NCBI GenBank assembly: GCA_946902875.1
Contig: OX336355.1
Location: forward strand, 11,210,847-11,274,846
Direction: 5' to 3'
From: Nematopogon swammerdamellus
Lineage: Eukaryota; Arthropoda; Insecta; Lepidoptera; Adelidae
Length of the DNA stretch: 64,000 bases
The notes below the pieces were generated by a model that had not been told where the DNA came from, did no database searches, and worked only from the letters and a program-made list of their open reading frames with translations. Of this stretch, positions 3,061 to 54,508 are shown piece by piece (the stretch's first letter is position 1; each line of letters opens with the position of its first letter). The translations under genes were made by a program, and so were the position numbers.

Positions 3061-3846
3061 CAGCCTATGCCACTCTTGGTTATAAACATTTCCACAACGC
3101 TTCGTTTTAAATAAGTACTTTCTTACCGAATACCAGACAACATAAAATTTTCAATGTTTTTTTATCGATTTCAAAATTCGATCAGATTTGTTTTATTCTC
3201 TCGTTGTTAGGTTTTATCAATGGGTTTAACCGTTATTTATTACCAATACTTTATCCTGGCATTTGACCAACTCAATAAAAACACACACACAACCACACAA
3301 ACTAACTTGAATGATTCGTCTGTCCAATGTCCATCAGCTCTTCCCCTAACCGGCCAAGATAAATGACCGCACTATACCGGATGGAGGAACGCTGTAGGCC
3401 GCGTAGTGAACATCACTCATAGTGCCACTATTGTGAACTGGTCATTTATCTACGGATTTGCGTATGCGATGCGTAATTAAAACTTGTGTAAGAACATTTT
3501 GGGGTTATCAGAATGAGGATTATTAGTGATTTAATTATACCTAAGTGTAATAATGAAAAAGAAAAAAATACACTAGAAAACTAGACAATTTATAGAAAAA
3601 CCTTTTACTTTTTTGTCTCGGAAAAACATGAGGATTGAGCTGGTGAAATTAATGTACTTGCCGTTACAACACCCTGTATATTTTAGTGTACCACGATCAA
3701 AGAAAGTTAGGTTTATGGTTTAAATTTTTCATACTAATCAAAACGATTCGTACCAAAGGCCTGTCGTTTAAGAGCTACAACAAATTTGTTAAATGTTATA
3801 TTGTACCTAACTAATGTATTAGAAGAATCACATTTACAAACGTAGT
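3061..3846. other. Anonymous non-coding
   Basis: A short CA run near 3280 and a possible weak inverted pair around 3360-3450 (AAATGACC / GGTCATTT). Nothing else supported. Confidence 0.5.
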
Positions 3847-34525: not shown

Positions 34526-34940
34526 GACAATCTTGACAAAAATGTTGAAAAGAAAAATGTGATGCCGAATATTCACATGTTTCTTCCAGACCGCATATTG
34601 TTACGAAACGGATACTAATGGTGGTAAACTGGTAACATGCAAGTACATAACTCTCACAAAAAATCCAAATTTAATAAAAGTGCATTCAAAGGACAATGAC
34701 TGGACGGACAGTGCTTCAGAATCAAATTAGGGAAGAAAAAAAATGCATCAAAATAAATCAATCTAACACCGTTTCACCCCTCAAGTGGCGATCCCTAATC
34801 ACTTCTGCCCCCCTTAAACGCTCTTTTTTTGGGTGAAATAGCGTAAAAGGGACAATAATTAAATTACGATACAAAAAGCTCATACTGATACAACTTATTC
34901 ACCACATGCCAATAAATACAAGTAAAATTGCTATGTTGGT

Positions 34941-36506
34941 ATGTATATGTTTAGTATATGTTTGAGCTTAACCAGGAAAGGTTCAAAGTTTACCTCGAGC
35001 AATCCAGGTCTGACAGTAGCCGGAAAACCAATCGCAACCGTGGCTGATGAAGCTCCTTTTAAATTCTTGGGAAAAAGGATCACCAGCAGAGGAAAGGAGC
35101 ATCCTACTGATGATATTGTCCAACTTTTCGAAGAGAGCCTCCGCCAAACTGACAATCTTCCCCTCCTGGGTACACAAAAGGCATGGATTTACGATAACTA
35201 CCTGACATCAAAACTTTCATGGCCATTTCTCGTCTACGACTTCACAAAGCAAAACCTGACTAAATTAGACTCGTATGTGACCAGATTCCTGAAATCATGG
35301 TTTGGACTGGCTCACCCGGCTGACTCGTCAACGCTATACAGATCTCACAATAACTTTGGACTGAACATTAAGAAACCGTCGATATTTTATCAAAAGGCGA
35401 GAATAGCCAAACGATGTATACTCAAAGACTCCAATGATAGCGCTATTCAAGCCTTACCCAACACATCACTATCAGATGAACTGGAATCGAGACTCGACTT
35501 CTACAAATCATTCCAAGTTGGTACACGCACCAATAGATCTGGATTGGGCATAGAAACAGCAAAGTCTGATAAAGAAATACTGAAAGGTTTTGCTCAGGAG
35601 GACATGGAACAAGGCTTCAAACTTCACGCCTTAAACCTAGAAATGCAGAATGATTGGCTAACAGTGGGTGACTTCTGCATCCCTCCTGCATTGAAGTGGA
35701 AATCCATAATATACAACTGGTCCCCTGAGCTGCTTAAGTTCTACTTAAATGCATTCCAGCTTACTCTCCCCGACCCGAGTAACCTAGTTAGATGGGGGAA
35801 ATCTACAAATAGACTATGCCCGTCATGTAAGGAGTTCGTAGGCACGGCCAAACATTTGTTATGCGGATGCAAAATACTACTTGAGCGAGGCCAGTATTCC
35901 TACCGTCATGATAAAGTCCTCCAAATCATCAGAGAGGCCATCAACCTGTCAATTGCACGGACCAGGAAAGGGCAAACCAGTAGCGGCTTCCAGAAGGTCA
36001 ACTTTGTGAAACCTGGAGCCAATAAGCTGCCCAAAGATAGGACTAAACCTTCTTCAATTTTGGGAGCAGCAAAGGATTGGGAATTGTTGATGGACACACA
36101 TGAGAAGCATTACCAAATGCCTTCGGAAATCTGTACCACAGCATTAAGGCCGGATATACTCATATTCTCAAAAGCGACAAAGCATGTAGTACTTGTTGAA
36201 CTTACAGTTCCATGGGAAAGTAACATACCGAAGGACCACAACATCAAGCTTAACAAGTACTGCAACTTAGTAGACCGGATTGTGAGAAACGGATTCAAGA
36301 CTGATCTCTTCGCTGTGGAAGTCGGAGCAAGAGGACTACCAGCGAAGTCGCTCTACAGTCTCTTCAAGAATCTAGGGCTCCCAAGATCGACGCTAAGCTC
36401 ATATATGGAGAGAGCTTCGAAAACGTCACTGGAAGCATCCTACAGAATATGGATAGGTAGAGAGAGGGAGGTCGAGAGCGGGACTGGTGGTTTCCCCGCG
36501 TCCTAG
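34941..36506 (+). CDS. C-terminal part of an RLE-type LINE protein (CCHC finger and restriction-like endonuclease), 5' truncated
   Basis: 521 codons without a stop. The start is simply the first ATG after truncation; the reverse transcriptase core that should precede it is absent. Residues 30-150 (motifs FLGKRITSRGKE, PLLGTQKAWIYD, WPFLVYDF, TRFLKSWFGL) match the region after the RT fingers in R2/Hero/NeSL-like elements. A zinc knuckle C-x2-C-x8-H-x4-C lies at C293, C296, H305, C310. An RHD motif lies at 322-324. A restriction-like endonuclease core has PD at 404-405 and E420 in LVELTVPWE. In R2-type elements this endonuclease nicks the target DNA to prime reverse transcription. An intact frame suggests a young insertion. 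The stop codon falls inside a hammerhead ribozyme. The exact clade is uncertain; the assignment rests on the finger-RHD-RLE order. Confidence 0.85.
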   Translation: MYMFSICLSLTRKGSKFTSSNPGLTVAGKPIATVADEAPFKFLGKRITSRGKEHPTDDIVQLFEESLRQTDNLPLLGTQKAWIYDNYLTSKLSWPFLVYDFTKQNLTKLDSYVTRFLKSWFGLAHPADSSTLYRSHNNFGLNIKKPSIFYQKARIAKRCILKDSNDSAIQALPNTSLSDELESRLDFYKSFQVGTRTNRSGLGIETAKSDKEILKGFAQEDMEQGFKLHALNLEMQNDWLTVGDFCIPPALKWKSIIYNWSPELLKFYLNAFQLTLPDPSNLVRWGKSTNRLCPSCKEFVGTAKHLLCGCKILLERGQYSYRHDKVLQIIREAINLSIARTRKGQTSSGFQKVNFVKPGANKLPKDRTKPSSILGAAKDWELLMDTHEKHYQMPSEICTTALRPDILIFSKATKHVVLVELTVPWESNIPKDHNIKLNKYCNLVDRIVRNGFKTDLFAVEVGARGLPAKSLYSLFKNLGLPRSTLSSYMERASKTSLEASYRIWIGREREVESGTGGFPAS

Positions 36507-36568
36507 TCAACGCAGACTAGCTGACGAGGGCTTGACGCGAGCCGAAACGTGAAGCATGCGCGGGAAAC
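36490..36568 (+). ncRNA. Hammerhead ribozyme (open in stem III) at the end of the RLE-LINE ORF
   Basis: All conserved core positions are present. GTC (36500-36502) is the cleavage triplet. Stem I is CTAGTC (36503-36508) paired with GACTAG (36515-36520), closed by a 6-nt loop. The core CTGACGA is at 36521-36527. Stem II runs 36528-36543 (GG, bulged G, CT against AGCC). GAA is at 36544-36546. Stem III pairs A36547 with T36501 and continues C-G, G-C, T-G, G-C; after a 10-nt bulge, GTTTCCC (36490-36496) pairs perfectly with GGGAAAC (36562-36568). Predicted cleavage between 36502 and 36503 would split the last sense codon and remove the stop codon from the mRNA. The fold is seen in the sequence; activity is inferred. 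Confidence 0.82.
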
Positions 36569-36895
36569 TTAGAGTGGCCACTCGCTAGTCCCGGCCTCGA
36601 TTAATACCCTCCTCTACTGCCGATGGGCCCGGATATGTTCGGTGAAGCCATCGTAAGCTTAGATCCACACCTTCTAGGGTTCTTGAGATGGAACCTTTTG
36701 TGGGCAGTATATAATGAACCACATCACAATATAAAACTTGACAAGAGAAATTCTATCACCGGTTTATTCTCAATTATTTTGAAATAAAGAAAATCTTAAG
36801 AATGTTTCTATAATCAGGATTCGGGTTAAGTACCGCTGTAAACGGTTCAATAAATCAAAATTTTGTGGATTTTTTGATGTGGCAGAAAACACCGT

Positions 36896-36975
36896 CCCGT
36901 GCCGTGCCGTGCCGTGCCGTACCGTGCCGTGCCGTGCCGTACCGTGCCGTTCCATGCCGTACCGTATCGTATTGT
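36896..36975. repeat. (CCGTG)n microsatellite
   Basis: About 15 imperfect pentamers GCCGT/ACCGT, degrading at the right end. Confidence 0.85.
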
Positions 36976-37573
36976 ATATATTTATTGCACTAAAATAAAA
37001 TATGAGCAAAAGGTAACACTTAATGCCTCTCGGCGTTTTCTAACAGAATACCTTTGGGGTAAAAGGTAAGCATCGAACCGTGTTTCTCACAGCGGTTGCA
37101 TGACATTACCCCTGTTGTACTCGAATAATCAATTAAACTTACACCCGTATCAAATCAGAAAACATTACATTTCCTTTCCGGTCACATTTGAATCTAATGT
37201 CCAAAATAATGTCCGCCATTACCAAAGTTAACGCTTCTAATTGGATCAAATGTTGTCATTACTCATTTGAATATGCTGGTCTTGGTTATAGCAGAGCGTA
37301 AGTTTAAAGTGTGCGAGATTGCATAATACATTTTATAATCATAAAACGTTCTCTTTACACACACTTTATTAAGAAAAGAAAAATAAATGCATTTATGGTT
37401 ATGAAAAAACCACAGAGAAAAGTTATGAATCAAAATCTTACGAAACACACGACCGTTTAGATATTGAAATAGGAAATTCATAACTAAGATATTATATTTG
37501 AATAACTCGTCTAATCTTTAAACAGTTCTTACTGAAACAATAATAGTTTACTTAAAACTATCAAAATTAAGAA

Positions 37574-50528: not shown

Positions 50529-50543
50529 TGGTGACCCCGACGT
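50529..50543 (+). promoter_or_regulatory. Primer binding site, tRNA-Trp type
   Basis: TGGTGACCCCGACGT starts one base after the 5' LTR. It is complementary to the CCA end and acceptor/T-arm side of insect tRNA-Trp, the primer used by CsRn1-clade elements. Confidence 0.85.
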
Positions 50544-50567
50544 TCGACGAGAGCTACCTTCTACAAC

Positions 50568-51428
50568 ATGTCAAACAAAGAGGAGCGAGTCGACGAAATA
50601 GGAGCGCTCTCCTTATCATCTAAAATACCGCCGTTTTGGAGAGAGCACCCTAGACTTTGGTTCGCCCAATTTGAATCGGTTATTGCGCCACACAAGCAAG
50701 GGGACGAGTCTAAGTACCACCTGGTTGTAGCGAGACTCGAGCGCGCCGATGTCGAGCAAGCGAGCGACATTTTGCTCCAGCCGCCCGCCACCAACAAGTA
50801 CGAGACTTTGAAGTTGCGCCTGCTCGCCGTGTACGAAGAATCCGAAGCGCGCCAGTTTCAAAAGTTACTTAACGACATGGAACTAGGCGACCAGAAGCCT
50901 TCTCAGTTACTCCGTCGCATGCGAGAACTCGCAATGGGCAAAGTCCCAGACGACACACTCAAGATAATGTGGACCGGACACCTGCCGCCATCCATCCGCT
51001 CCGTGCTTTCCATCAGCCAAGAGCCGAGCCTGGATGTGTTGGCTTCCATGGCCGACAAGATGACGGAACATTCAAAAGAGATTAACTCCATATGCAATGG
51101 GTGTCAACACGCAGGCGGCGGCGCCACCGCCGCCGCCGCCGGCCGAACGAACGCTGACTTGGCGAATAAAATCGAAGAACTAACGCGAGAAATATCCGCA
51201 CTGAAGATGCATCGCGGTCGCTCCTACGAGCGAGACTGGCATCGCTCGCCGCCGCCGGCTAGCCGCGGCGGCGGCGGCGGAGGCGGCCGCTCGCGCACTC
51301 CCTCCCGCAGTCGCCGCGACACTAGCGCCTCCAGCGGCGGCGTATGTTTCTATCACCGCCGCTTCGGTGCATCCGCACGACGTTGCCTGCGACCCTGCAC
51401 TTTCGACGAACGAGCGCAGGAAAACTAA
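50568..51428 (+). CDS. gag: Gag polyprotein of CsRn1-type Gypsy element
   Basis: This 286-codon ORF encodes the structural protein that packages the element RNA. The N-terminal half (about residues 20-165, with motifs PPFWREHP and LWFAQFE) resembles the capsid-like Gag domain common in insect Gypsy elements. A glycine- and arginine-rich, low-complexity stretch follows (about residues 185-255, including an Ala run and Gly runs). It ends with a zinc knuckle of the unusual form C-x2-H-x9-C-x3-C (C260, H263, C273, C277), the CHCC finger typical of the CsRn1 clade. The start is the first ATG, 40 bp after the LTR. The stop at 51426-51428 lies inside the pol frame. GGAAAAC just before the stop could be a slippage site for the -1 shift into pol, but it is not a canonical heptamer. 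Confidence 0.9.
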   Translation: MSNKEERVDEIGALSLSSKIPPFWREHPRLWFAQFESVIAPHKQGDESKYHLVVARLERADVEQASDILLQPPATNKYETLKLRLLAVYEESEARQFQKLLNDMELGDQKPSQLLRRMRELAMGKVPDDTLKIMWTGHLPPSIRSVLSISQEPSLDVLASMADKMTEHSKEINSICNGCQHAGGGATAAAAGRTNADLANKIEELTREISALKMHRGRSYERDWHRSPPPASRGGGGGGGRSRTPSRSRRDTSASSGGVCFYHRRFGASARRCLRPCTFDERAQEN

Positions 51429-54400
51429 ACCTGACTTTGGAGGCGACGGGATCCGAAGTCAACACAATTTCACACCGTTTGTTCGTCACCGACCGCACGA
51501 CAGGACTGCGCTTCCTTGTAGACACCGGAGCGAATATTTCCGTACTGCCTGTGGATAAAACTAAGAAAAGAAGTACGAGCATATCCGAGTTCAGCCTCTA
51601 CGCAGCGAATGGATCCGTTATACCTACCTACGGCAACAGGCGGCTAGACCTCGACCTCGGCCTACGTCGTGCGCACTCCTGGGACTTCACAGTAGCCGCA
51701 GTCAGCCGGCCCATATTAGGCGCTGACTTCATAAAACACCACCACATTCTCGTGGACTTGCACGGCAGCCAGCTGATCGATAGTCAAACGCATCTATCGG
51801 TCCGAGGAGCGGTACTTCCCACGAGCACACCGACAGTACGAACCATCGACGTGCAAATGCCTTACCATGACCTTCTGGAGAGGTACCCAGAGCTGACGAA
51901 ACCATATTTGCTGAAAGAGAGAACAAACGAAGACGTATATCACTGCATCGAAACACAAGGTCCGCCGGTCTACACTAAAGCACGACCATTGCCACCACAC
52001 AAATACCAAGCGGCTAAAAAAGAATTCCAAGTCATGCTTGAGCAAGGCATATGTCGTCCGTCTAAGAGCTCCTGGGCCAGTCCGCTGCACCTCGTCACCA
52101 AGAAGAACGGAGAGTTGAGACCTTGCGGCGACTTCCGGCGACTCAATGCCACGACCGTACCGGACCGCTACCCTGTCCCGCGCCTGCACGACTTCACCAA
52201 CAATCTGGAAGGAAAGAAAATTTTTTCGACGATAGATCTGCACCGCGCCTATCACCAAATACGCGTAGCCGATAGAGATATCGAAAAGACAGCAATCATC
52301 ACACCCTTCGGCTTATTCGAATTCCAGAGGATGTGCTTCGGGTTGCGAAATGCTGCCCAAACTTTTCAACGTTTTTTGGACTCGGTGCTCCGTGACCTAG
52401 ACTTCGTATTCTGCTACTTAGATGATCTGCTCATTGCTTCATCGAACGAACAGCAGCACCGCGAACACTTGGAAGAAATTTTCAGAAGACTAGACCAGAA
52501 TGGAGTAACATTAAACGCGTCCAAATGCGTCTTCGGAAAGCCATGCGTACAATTCCTCGGCTACAGCGTGTCAGTGGAAGGCATCGCCCCGACCCAAGAG
52601 AAAGTACAAGCGATTACAACTTACCCCAAGCCCACGACCGTGCAGGAATTACGTCGCTTTCTCGGGATGTTAAACTTCTATCGAGCAAGTCTTCCTCGAG
52701 CAGCTCATCACCAAGACGTGCTAAATAAATACCTACACAATTCAAAAAAAAATGACAAGACAAAGATCGCATGGACTACGGAAGCAGAACGAGCCTTCGA
52801 AACATGTAAGGTGGATATAAAGGACGCTGCGACACTGACTCATCCCTCGGCATCTGCAAGTTACGCAATAATGAGCGACGCCTCTAACACCTGCGCTGGT
52901 GGAATAATCCAACAAAATATCAAAGGAAAATGGAAACCGCTAGCATTCTTCTCGAAGAGATTCTCCGATGCACAACAACGCTACAGTACATACGACCGCG
53001 AGCTGCTGGCTATGTACTTAGCCGTTCGCCACTTCAGAAAAATTTTCGAAGGAAGAGAGCTAATTCTATACACCGACCACAAGCCGCTAGTCTACTCCTT
53101 ATCGACGCCGAGCAGTTCAAAGAATGAAACGCCGCGCCGCACCCGCCAGCTCGAGTACATCGGCCAGTTTACATCTGCTATCCGGCACGTCAAGGGAGAA
53201 GACAACACGGTCGCGGACGCACTGTCAAGAATAGAAGAGATTTCACTCCCGACGACAATCAACTACGACGAATTGGCACAAAAACAGCTGATAGACGAAG
53301 ATATACCAGCGCTACTGAAAAATGTAAAACTACACTTCAAAAAGTTAAGCACGCCATCGACGTCAAGACAGATATTATGCGAAACGTCTACAGGCAATGT
53401 TCGCCCCTACCTATCGCACGACTTTCGTTTGCCAGCCTTCAAGGCCGTCCACGAACTGAGTCATCCGGGCATCAGAGCGACACGCAAGATGATGACGCAG
53501 CGATTTTTTTGGCCATCTATAAACTCCGATGTCAACGAGTGGAGCAGAAATTGTATCGCATGTCAGCGATCGAAGGTGCAGCGACATACGACCGCACCGC
53601 TCGCTAACTTCACATCGACGGACCGATTTGCTCACATACACATAGACATCATCGGGCCGCTACCTTTATCGCAAGAGTCAAAATACTGCGTCACCATCAT
53701 CGACCGTTGTACGAGGTGGCCGGAAGCGTTCCCAGTCAGCAACATCACCGCTGAGACAGTAGCTGAGACACTATACAACGGCTGGATATCAAGATTCGGA
53801 TGTCCAGCGACACTCGTTAGCGACCAGGGCAGGCAGTTCGAGTCTGAACTAATGAAGAGCCTCATGAACAGGCTGGGCATAGAAAAGAACCGTACTAGCG
53901 CTTACCATCCTCAAGCAAACGGTATTGTTGAGCGCTGGCACCGCTCGCTCAAGACATCCCTCACGGCAAGACTCATCGCGCAGAGCGAGCACTGGGCTCG
54001 CGAGCTGCCTACAGTACTTTTAGGACTACGTACAGCTGTAAAAGAAGACATCGGAGCTAGCCCCGCCGAGTTGGTGTACGGACGACAGCTACGCATCCCC
54101 GGTGAATTCTTTCAAGAAGCGGCAACATCGGCGCCGACAGAATCTCATTTTATGAACGTACTGACCGAAACGTTGAGGAGAGCGCAAGCCGTAAAACGAA
54201 CGTCTCAGCCGACGCGAGCCGTGTTCATTCACGACGAGCTACCGAAGTGCACACACGTCTTCGTACGCAACGACGCCTCGCGCAAGCCGCTGACGCCTAC
54301 TTACGACGGCCCGTACCGCGTTATCGAGCGGCGAGACAAGATCTACACGATTCAGCTGCCTACGAGAACGTCGAATATATCTATCGATCGCCTGAAGCCT

Positions 54401-54508
54401 GCATTTCTCATGAACGAGGACGGGAAGCAAGGGTGCACGGCATATACGACACGATCAGGCCGCGCATCAAAACCGCCTGTACGCTTCGCTGAGGGGGGAG
54501 CTCTGTAG
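51344..54508 (+). CDS. pol: Pol polyprotein: protease, reverse transcriptase, RNase H, integrase
   Basis: The open frame from the first ATG is 1054 codons. It overlaps gag by 85 nt in the -1 frame, so it is probably made by frameshifting rather than from this ATG. Domains in order: aspartic protease with DTGA at residues 60-63; reverse transcriptase with YLDD at 358-361; RNase H with its first Asp near 512 and TDHKPLVY further on; integrase with an HHCC zinc domain starting at H703 and a catalytic triad D768, D827, E863 (DD35E spacing), followed by GIVERWH. Every key residue is present and there is no internal stop. The stop codon TAG (54506-54508) is formed by the first bases of the 3' LTR. 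Order PR-RT-RH-IN places it in Ty3/Gypsy (Metaviridae). Confidence 0.96.
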   Translation: MFLSPPLRCIRTTLPATLHFRRTSAGKLNLTLEATGSEVNTISHRLFVTDRTTGLRFLVDTGANISVLPVDKTKKRSTSISEFSLYAANGSVIPTYGNRRLDLDLGLRRAHSWDFTVAAVSRPILGADFIKHHHILVDLHGSQLIDSQTHLSVRGAVLPTSTPTVRTIDVQMPYHDLLERYPELTKPYLLKERTNEDVYHCIETQGPPVYTKARPLPPHKYQAAKKEFQVMLEQGICRPSKSSWASPLHLVTKKNGELRPCGDFRRLNATTVPDRYPVPRLHDFTNNLEGKKIFSTIDLHRAYHQIRVADRDIEKTAIITPFGLFEFQRMCFGLRNAAQTFQRFLDSVLRDLDFVFCYLDDLLIASSNEQQHREHLEEIFRRLDQNGVTLNASKCVFGKPCVQFLGYSVSVEGIAPTQEKVQAITTYPKPTTVQELRRFLGMLNFYRASLPRAAHHQDVLNKYLHNSKKNDKTKIAWTTEAERAFETCKVDIKDAATLTHPSASASYAIMSDASNTCAGGIIQQNIKGKWKPLAFFSKRFSDAQQRYSTYDRELLAMYLAVRHFRKIFEGRELILYTDHKPLVYSLSTPSSSKNETPRRTRQLEYIGQFTSAIRHVKGEDNTVADALSRIEEISLPTTINYDELAQKQLIDEDIPALLKNVKLHFKKLSTPSTSRQILCETSTGNVRPYLSHDFRLPAFKAVHELSHPGIRATRKMMTQRFFWPSINSDVNEWSRNCIACQRSKVQRHTTAPLANFTSTDRFAHIHIDIIGPLPLSQESKYCVTIIDRCTRWPEAFPVSNITAETVAETLYNGWISRFGCPATLVSDQGRQFESELMKSLMNRLGIEKNRTSAYHPQANGIVERWHRSLKTSLTARLIAQSEHWARELPTVLLGLRTAVKEDIGASPAELVYGRQLRIPGEFFQEAATSAPTESHFMNVLTETLRRAQAVKRTSQPTRAVFIHDELPKCTHVFVRNDASRKPLTPTYDGPYRVIERRDKIYTIQLPTRTSNISIDRLKPAFLMNEDGKQGCTAYTTRSGRASKPPVRFAEGGAL
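54491..54503 (+). promoter_or_regulatory. Polypurine tract for plus-strand priming
   Basis: GAGGGGGGAG followed by CTC lies immediately before the 3' LTR, the expected place for the plus-strand primer tract. It overlaps the last codons of pol. Confidence 0.75.

What the first reader, a model, noticed from the sequence alone, without database searches (positions are those of the whole stretch)
36490..36568. Complete hammerhead ribozyme across the stop codon of an RLE-type LINE ORF
Seen: every hammerhead core nucleotide (GTC, CTGACGA, GAA, A15.1-U16.1), a perfect 6-bp stem I and a bipartite stem III closed by a perfect 7-bp outer helix. Known: hammerheads in animals are best linked to Penelope-like elements and retrozymes, and R2 elements carry HDV-like ribozymes at their 5' end. 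Inference: a hammerhead at the 3' end of an RLE-LINE ORF would be a different pairing of ribozyme and retroelement. Its predicted cut between 36502 and 36503 would split the last sense codon and remove the stop codon, so cleavage would uncouple template RNA from translatable mRNA. I cannot tell whether this has been described.
Basis: partly seen in the sequence, partly recalled or inferred. Interest (0 to 1): 0.88.

Follow-up and report, generated by a model that had tools for sequence, protein, structure and literature searches.

The report
Hammerhead ribozyme in R2-like LINE end
A young, high-copy jumping gene related to the R2 elements appears to carry a self-cutting hammerhead RNA across its own stop codon, and a few genomic copies begin exactly where that RNA is predicted to cut, but cutting has not been shown.

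Summary
The hammerhead at 36490-36568 is really there: all core bases, 6-bp stem I, 5+7-bp stem III. Stem II needs one extra nucleotide (G36528). Rfam RF00008 (type III) scores 22.3 bits, E 0.0049 on 91 nt, under its gathering score of 48.5. A descriptor of this quality hit once in 1,880 Mb simulated.

The host is a 3,639-bp R2-like RLE LINE in many near-identical copies. A diverged copy keeps all 37 core, stem I and stem II bases; changes hit free sites and stem III. Head-to-tail unit junctions number 141. Upstream copies start exactly at the predicted cut in 2 of 55 junctions read (P about 0.002). Genome-wide, starts at the cut number 32 versus 9, 15 and 15 at controls, some being small deletions.

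Against: energy rules prefer another fold by 5.4 kcal/mol; no RF00008 match in the diverged copy. Self-cleavage is untested. Verdict: probable type III hammerhead, a new ribozyme-retroelement pairing.

The parts
34926..36506 (+). 5'-truncated ORF of the R2-like RLE LINE (3' part of a 1,146-aa frame): end of RT, CCHC zinc knuckle, restriction-like endonuclease; UAG stop at 36504-36506. Element sequence begins near 34960.
   Evidence: full-length frame in L009 and L011
36470..36602 (+). Long stable hairpin that encloses the hammerhead and prolongs its stem III; MFE -63.9 kcal/mol for 36470-36610, z -4.31
36490..36496 (+). Outer part of stem III, 5' strand (pairs with 36562-36568); two pairs with a change on both sides
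36497..36501 (+). Inner stem III, 5' strand (pairs with 36547-36551); U16.1 = 36501, G16.2 = 36500
36502..36503 (+). Predicted cleavage site, between C17 (36502) and 36503; = unit position 3467|3468
   Evidence: position from the motif; copies L047 and L050 begin at 36503
36503..36520 (+). Stem I, 6 bp (36503-36508 / 36515-36520), loop AACGCA; contains the UAG stop
   Evidence: paired bases invariant in 18 of 18 haplotypes
36521..36527 (+). Core CUGACGA (C3-A9); N7 is C here, A in the diverged copy
36528..36528 (+). Extra nucleotide between A9 and stem II (G here, A in the diverged copy)
36529..36543 (+). Stem II, 6 bp with loop ACG; among the haplotypes read, variation is confined to the loop (36535, 36536)
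36544..36547 (+). Core GAA plus A15.1
   Evidence: one copy (L035) has G36544A
36562..36568 (+). Outer part of stem III, 3' strand
36503..36674 (+). Predicted 172-nt 3' cleavage product: rest of the ribozyme plus the element's 3' end (...CCACACCTTC)
   Evidence: 3' end of the element at 36674

Best explanation
The segment is a type III hammerhead ribozyme that belongs to the 3' end of a recently active R2-like, non-site-specific LINE. It most likely cuts the element's RNA between 36502 and 36503. The 5' part (mRNA without stop codon) is separated from a 172-nt 3' RNA that carries the 3' terminus where target-primed reverse transcription starts. That 3' RNA can then be copied to its new 5' end. 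It may be copied alone, or as an acceptor after the reverse transcriptase runs off a full-length RNA and jumps end to end; this leaves [3' fragment][full unit] joined at a ...CCTTC|GAAAC... junction. Shown: motif, its retention in a diverged copy, native place in the element, the junctions, two insertions starting exactly at the cut. Inferred: cleavage, use of the fragment as template, template jumping as the source of junctions.
For: Core and three stems present, RF00008 E 0.0049; 1 hit in 1,880 Mb simulated. Diverged copy L006: 8 differences in 36497-36551, none on the 37 nt of GUC, stem I, CUGA-GA, stem II and GAAA. Five fall on N7, the extra nt and loop I; three fall on inner stem III (one base deleted, G-U to G-C, one pair broken). 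P is 3.6e-5 if inner stem III counts as free and 0.0054 if it counts as constrained; on the MAFFT alignment (7 differences) 1.6e-4 and 0.0023. The outer helix has 2 pairs changed on both sides. 30 of the 37 nt lie 3' of the stop, so coding does not explain them. L047 and L050, with unrelated flanks, start exactly at the cut: 2 of 55 junctions, P 0.0017-0.0030; L052 (3470) possibly too. Starts with two mismatched bases before the site: 32 at the cut versus 15 (36509), 9 (36497), 15 (36506); binomial P 1.6e-4 for all hits, 9e-4 and 0.0098 after dropping likely small deletions. 141 junctions at up to 2 mismatches, reversed control 0; the 100 listed are all exact.
Against: The nearest-neighbour MFE is another fold, 5.4 kcal/mol better, with probability about 0 for the inner stem III; the diverged copy also prefers another fold. 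RF00008 score is less than half its gathering score, and no RF00008 match was reported for the diverged copy. The conservation argument rests on one diverged copy and weakens when stem III is counted. Position 3606 also has 2 starts, and a coincidence somewhere among 20 starts in 300 nt has probability 0.48.
Confidence: 0.47

Rival explanations
1. The region is a structured 3' RNA that the LINE protein binds to start target-primed reverse transcription, as in R2. The hammerhead-like core is a chance resemblance inside a conserved fold.
For: The alternative long fold is more stable and very significant; R2Tg recognises a structured 3' UTR (PMC12222951, passages); both pairs changed on both sides lie in the helix common to both folds.
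Against: Chance of such a core is about 1 per 1,880 Mb simulated. In the alignment the alternative-specific helices show 3 broken pairs and 3 lost to gaps, against 1 broken pair in hammerhead stem III (by the alignment these fall in the L006 row). Changes in L006 avoid the core and stems I and II. Two copies start at the predicted cut.
Confidence: 0.27
2. Penelope-like processing: tandem units are transcribed through, and the hammerhead cuts long transcripts into unit-length or circular RNAs that serve as template; 5' starts at the cut mark the upstream cut.
For: Tandem or partial-tandem organisation with hammerheads is the Penelope layout (PMC11167929, passages). 141 junctions; some are exactly one unit (3,639 bp) apart: C10:18001804/18005443 and C15:18477706/18481345.
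Against: In L042 two 564-nt mini-units precede a unit that starts at base 1, which a single unit-length circle cannot give but jumping between RNAs can (inference). No RNA data were available.
Confidence: 0.15
3. The motif is a former hammerhead that is now slow or silent because of the extra nucleotide and the competing fold; it persists because the segment also serves the reverse transcriptase.
For: Extra nucleotide, low RF00008 score, better alternative fold, one copy with G12 mutated (L035).
Against: Core kept in the diverged copy while N7, the extra nucleotide and loop I changed; an extra core nucleotide is on record for a viroid hammerhead (De la Pena and Flores 2001, title seen in a reference list; its position is recalled).
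Confidence: 0.15

Closest known systems
Type III hammerhead ribozyme (Rfam RF00008); plant retrozymes, satellite RNAs, toad/termite HDV-like agents, dipteran and termite genomes (PMC7936874, PMC7761336, passages)
   Same: Open stem III, closed stems I and II, all core bases; stem I of 6 bp with a 6-nt loop is the usual size quoted there
   Different: One extra nucleotide before stem II, 3-nt stem II loop on a 6-bp stem (4 and 4 usual), 10-nt one-sided bulge in stem III, very long extended stem III, sits across a LINE stop codon; sub-threshold Rfam score
R2 LINEs with a 5' HDV-like ribozyme (PMC3774820, start of abstract in listings; PMC12222951 passages)
   Same: R2-type RT; a ribozyme inside element RNA
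   Different: Ribozyme class differs (hammerhead, not HDV-like) and it lies at the 3' end; no Rfam match up to E 10 in the first 180 nt of a unit; element is not site-specific
Penelope-like elements with minimal type I hammerheads (PMC11167929, PMC7761336, passages)
   Same: Hammerhead, tandem or partial-tandem copies
   Different: RT is R2-like, no GIY-YIG match; hammerhead is type III with stem III intact
Non-site-specific R2-like BLAG elements of the German cockroach (PMC7650587, section 3.3 read; passages)
   Same: 3.2-3.7 kb, one ORF, 3' UTR 132-241 bp, varied insertion sites, 5' truncations
   Different: 6, 3, 4, 4, 3 and 3 copies there versus at least 40 here; no ribozyme of BLAG and no tandem junction mentioned in the parts read
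Animal and plant retrozymes (PMC7229834 abstract; PMC4918200 passages)
   Same: Hammerhead inside a retroelement; short RNA between cut and element end
   Different: Retrozymes are non-autonomous, the plant ones with a hammerhead in each of two LTRs; this is an autonomous LINE with one per unit

Membership tests
Hammerhead ribozyme, type III | Core C3UGANGA9, G12AA14, A15.1-U16.1, H17 not G | tested here: met
   17 of 18 haplotypes keep all core bases, one has G12A
Hammerhead ribozyme, type III | Stems I and III formed around the core | tested here: met
   6 bp and 5+7 bp by sequence; 99.8% of 432 cells pair over four helices. Not the predicted MFE fold
Hammerhead ribozyme, type III | Stem II directly after A9 in canonical register | tested here: not met
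   2 pairs in register; 6 pairs with one extra nucleotide
Hammerhead ribozyme, type III | Covariance model at gathering score | tested here: not met
   22.3 of 48.5 bits, E 0.0049 on 91 nt; no RF00008 match up to E 10 for the diverged copy
Hammerhead ribozyme, type III | Loop I - loop II tertiary contact | not tested
   loops are present; contact not modelled
Hammerhead ribozyme, type III | Self-cleavage at H17 | 1.1 | not testable with these tools
   indirect only: starts at 36503
R2-like RLE LINE | R2-type reverse transcriptase | tested here: met
   PF00078 E 4.3e-26; R2 protein 9nl3 E 1.9e-38
R2-like RLE LINE | N-terminal C2H2 finger, CCHC knuckle, RLE R/KPD-X12-14-D/E motif | tested here: inconclusive
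   zf-C2H2 17.2 bits and zf-RVT 16 bits, both under cut-off; RPD-X14-E read by eye, motif recalled
R2-like RLE LINE | Insertion into 28S rDNA (true R2 only) | tested here: not met
   3' flanks differ among the copies read
Penelope-like element | PLE reverse transcriptase with GIY-YIG endonuclease | tested here: not met
   Pfam up to E 0.1 finds RVT_1 with weak zf-C2H2 and zf-RVT only
Retrozyme | Non-autonomous element bounded by two hammerheads | tested here: not met
   1,146-aa ORF in L009 and L011; one descriptor hit in the window

The most novel reading that the evidence does not exclude
An autonomous R2-like LINE carries an active hammerhead across its stop codon. Cutting makes a short, SINE-like 172-nt 3' RNA that the element's own reverse transcriptase copies and joins end to end with full-length RNA. 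One ribozyme thereby yields both solitary 172-nt insertions and tandem arrays, and trades translation against template making.
Probability: 0.28. Interest if true: 0.87.

Novelty: new variant of a known kind. Interest (0 to 1): 0.7.

Why it matters
Self-cleaving RNAs in LINEs have been reported at 5' ends (HDV-like in R2 and other LINEs; twister in RTE, given as in preparation in PMC7761336, passages). A hammerhead at the 3' end of an R2-like element would show that these elements can recruit another ribozyme class in a place where cutting costs the stop codon and frees the reverse-transcription start. The genome offers a built-in assay: 5' ends of insertions at the cut site, and head-to-tail junctions. 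Near-identical copies with an open frame make the element testable now.

Tried and rejected
Chance motif: at loose limits the motif is not rare enough for a whole-genome claim (6 in 113 Mb); at observed quality it is rare (1 in 1,880 Mb), but the limits were set after seeing it.

Inserted retrozyme rather than native part: rejected because element copies share it at the same place. The ORF of some relatives ends at a like distance from the conserved S-[YF]-x-[IL]-W block (counted by eye: 22 aa here and in P0013 and P0025, 23 in the Danaus proteins; P0002, P0007 and P0020 are shorter).

DNA relatives elsewhere: none in viral contigs or genome contigs. Protein relatives (Danaus, Cuerna and unnamed sources) came without DNA, so conservation of the ribozyme outside this genome is untested. 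C-terminal residues compatible with a NUH site were noted but prove nothing.

5' ribozyme: no Rfam match in L009:1930-2130.

Genome-wide proof of cut-site starts: only counts were possible. Of the 87 hits, the 55 not have T at -2, so most are probably C36502 point mutants. One of these, C12:2178827, lies 160 bp before a junction and may be a third cut-site start; unread. Of the 32 hits, 8 are GT (a 1-nt deletion in the CC run gives the same letters, though L050 is a true start) and 4 are CG (possible 2-nt deletion). Six of 15 control hits at 36506 are GC (a deletion between GTC repeats gives the same letters), and 4 of 15 at 36509 are GT; at 36497 5 of 9 are GT. The junction test CCTTC-CTAGTC did not complete.

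Recount: one search gave 44 junctions because it dropped loci with identical 300-nt surroundings. Counted by place there are 55 in hand, 52 with a start inside the held DNA. The conservation P counted inner stem III as free; one search gives the stricter values. Odds were lowered a little for that (best reading 0.50 to 0.47, novel case 0.30 to 0.28, first rival raised 0.25 to 0.27).

Full report
Observation. The letters at 36490-36568 are as described. Reading 5' to 3': GUUUCCC-CGCGU-C | CUAGUC-AACGCA-GACUAG-CUGACGA-G-GGCUUG-ACG-CGAGCC-GAAA-CGUG-AAGCAUGCGC-GGGAAAC. It is 6 bp only if G36528 is left as an extra nucleotide between A9 and 10.1; in the canonical register it has 2 pairs. An extra core nucleotide is on record for a viroid hammerhead (De la Pena and Flores 2001, title seen in the reference list of PMC4918200; the exact position is recalled).

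More than chance? Rfam gave no hammerhead at gathering threshold or on 281 nt. On 91 nt, with laxer filters, RF00008 type III matches over its full length: 22.3 bits, E 0.0049, gathering score 48.5. My descriptor (CUGANGA, GAAA, NUH, three stems) finds this one place in the window over both strands. In order-1 Markov sequence it finds 6 per 113 Mb at loose limits and 1 per 1,880 Mb at observed quality, one strand each. The surrounding 141 nt fold at -63.9 kcal/mol, z -4.31.

Host element. The ORF is the 3' part of a LINE that is 5'-truncated near 34960. In the window's own genome (699 Mb, 39 contigs) the query 36300-36800 has 42 listed matches, 40 of them at 100% (rounded) over 375 bases or more; only 40 of 1,420 candidates were scored, so the family is probably larger. 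The copies read end at 36674. The full unit is 3,639 bp. L009 and L011 hold an open frame of 1,146 aa; the L011 frame has RVT_1 (E 4.3e-26) and sub-threshold C2H2 and zf-RVT. Its RT matches solved R2 proteins (E 1.9e-38). 3' flanks differ between the copies read, so it is not site-specific. It is an R2-like RLE LINE, recently active by its near-identical copies. Protein relatives are named from Danaus and Cuerna.

Conservation. Among the sequence types in the 78 loci (several overlap), all but one differ from the window inside 36497-36551 only at 36535-36536 (loop II), at 36497 in one copy (L039), and at core position 36544 in one copy (L035). The exception, L006:523-658, is 85.5% identical over the last 220 bases of the unit. 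In 36497-36551 it has 8 differences, and none falls on the 37 nt of GUC, stem I, CUGA-GA, stem II and GAAA. Five fall on N7, the extra nucleotide and loop I. Three fall on the inner stem III: one base deleted, G-U turned to G-C, one pair broken. The hypergeometric P is 3.6e-5 if inner stem III is counted as free and 0.0054 if it is counted as constrained; on the MAFFT alignment, with 7 differences, 1.6e-4 and 0.0023. The partition is mine and was made after looking. On 18 haplotypes 99.8% of hammerhead cells pair, with 2 pairs changed on both sides, both in the outer helix. The MFE fold shares that helix and keeps 99.2%; its own helices show 3 broken pairs and 3 lost to gaps, against 1 broken in hammerhead stem III. 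Stems I and II do not vary, so covariation neither supports nor refutes them. No RF00008 match was reported for the L006 copy.

Genomic traces of cleavage. The unit's 3' end is joined to its 5' end (...CCACACCTTC|GAAACAAGACAG...) at 141 places at up to 2 mismatches, reversed control 0; the 100 places listed are exact. I hold 55 of these junctions (44 after a cruder filter). The usual layout is a 5'-truncated copy followed by a unit that begins at base 1. The truncated copy starts at many positions. In L047 and L050, with unrelated flanks, it starts exactly at unit 3468 = window 36503, the predicted cut. L052 starts at 3470 with flank letters that fit 3468 plus one inserted A. With the local density of starts (66 starts), 2 or more at one named position has P 0.0017-0.0030. 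Against that, position 3606 also has two starts, and some coincidence is expected in such data (0.48). Some starts (L035, L039 and L064 at 3062, L042 at 3374, L053 at 3170) are internal joints, not true 5' ends.

Genome-wide counts. I counted exact 26-nt matches preceded by two bases that differ from the element: at the cut 32; at 36509, 15; at 36497, 9; at 36506, 15. Allowing for the base composition that I assumed for the filter, the excess has P 1.6e-4. With likely small deletions removed it is 9e-4, and on the strictest removal 0.0098. The flanks of these hits could not be read, and 12 of the 32 have G just before the cut, more than expected, so part may be indels in longer copies. I take this as support, not proof.

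Mechanism. Known R2 enzymes jump from the 5' end of one RNA to the 3' end of another (Bibillo and Eickbush 2004, title seen in the reference list of PMC7650587). That would give [truncated copy][full unit] with a clean junction. It also fits L042, where two 564-nt mini-units precede a unit that starts at base 1. If the acceptor RNA was cut by the hammerhead, its copy ends at 36503. The rival is Penelope-like processing of tandem transcripts (PMC11167929 passages), where hammerheads, tandem copies and pseudo-LTRs also occur together and where, in that paper, no reads beginning or ending at the cut site were found. Stem I holds the stop codon, so a ribosome ending translation would block the fold (inference).

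Main weakness. Nearest-neighbour energies prefer a fold in which CGCGU pairs with AUGCG instead of ACGUG, 5.4 kcal/mol better, with inner stem III probability about 0; the diverged copy likewise prefers another fold. Energy rules do not count the hammerhead's tertiary core, but an inactive fold is a real possibility.

Literature. In the library, the terms hammerhead ribozyme, retrotransposon and restriction-like endonuclease together give one paper, which uses a hammerhead as a tool. Other searches were seen as listings only, with titles and starts of abstracts: 20 of 36 papers; none; 11 of 11; 28 of 29; 10 of 149. None of the listed titles or abstract starts names a natural hammerhead in an RLE LINE. 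PMC7761336 (passages) names HDV-like ribozymes in R2 and other LINEs, twister in RTE 5' ends (in preparation) and type I hammerheads in Penelope elements. PMC7936874 (passages) reports type III hammerheads in termite and dipteran genomes. Subscription papers and preprints are not covered, so priority is not settled.

Noticed in passing
G000, 141 places; e.g. L009:1950/1951, L010, L011, L015, L021, L047, L050: Head-to-tail junctions of the LINE unit, usually a 5'-truncated copy upstream of a unit that starts at base 1; some junctions are one unit (3,639 bp) apart.
   Followed up: partly
L042 (G000:C3:19998662 and 19999225): A 564-nt internally deleted mini-unit (unit 1-298 joined to 3374-3639) in tandem before a unit that starts at base 1: a derivative that keeps both ends and the ribozyme.
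   Followed up: no
L009:1951-2090: The 5' UTR holds about five short hairpin-like repeats of the form GG-GAAAGA-CC spaced by GACG (by eye); purpose unknown, no Rfam match.
   Followed up: no
L035, L039, L064: Three loci share an internal join of unit 3593 to 3062, either a rearranged subfamily or an internal template switch.
   Followed up: no
L006:523-658 (-): The diverged copy keeps the ribozyme core although the frame before the stop is shifted by one base (by eye), so RNA rather than protein may be what is conserved.
   Followed up: partly
window 50535-54508: Two overlapping long frames that look like gag and pol of a Ty3-like LTR retrotransposon (by eye).
   Followed up: no
window 36892-36980: CCGTG-type 10-nt tandem repeat shortly downstream of the LINE copy.
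   Followed up: no
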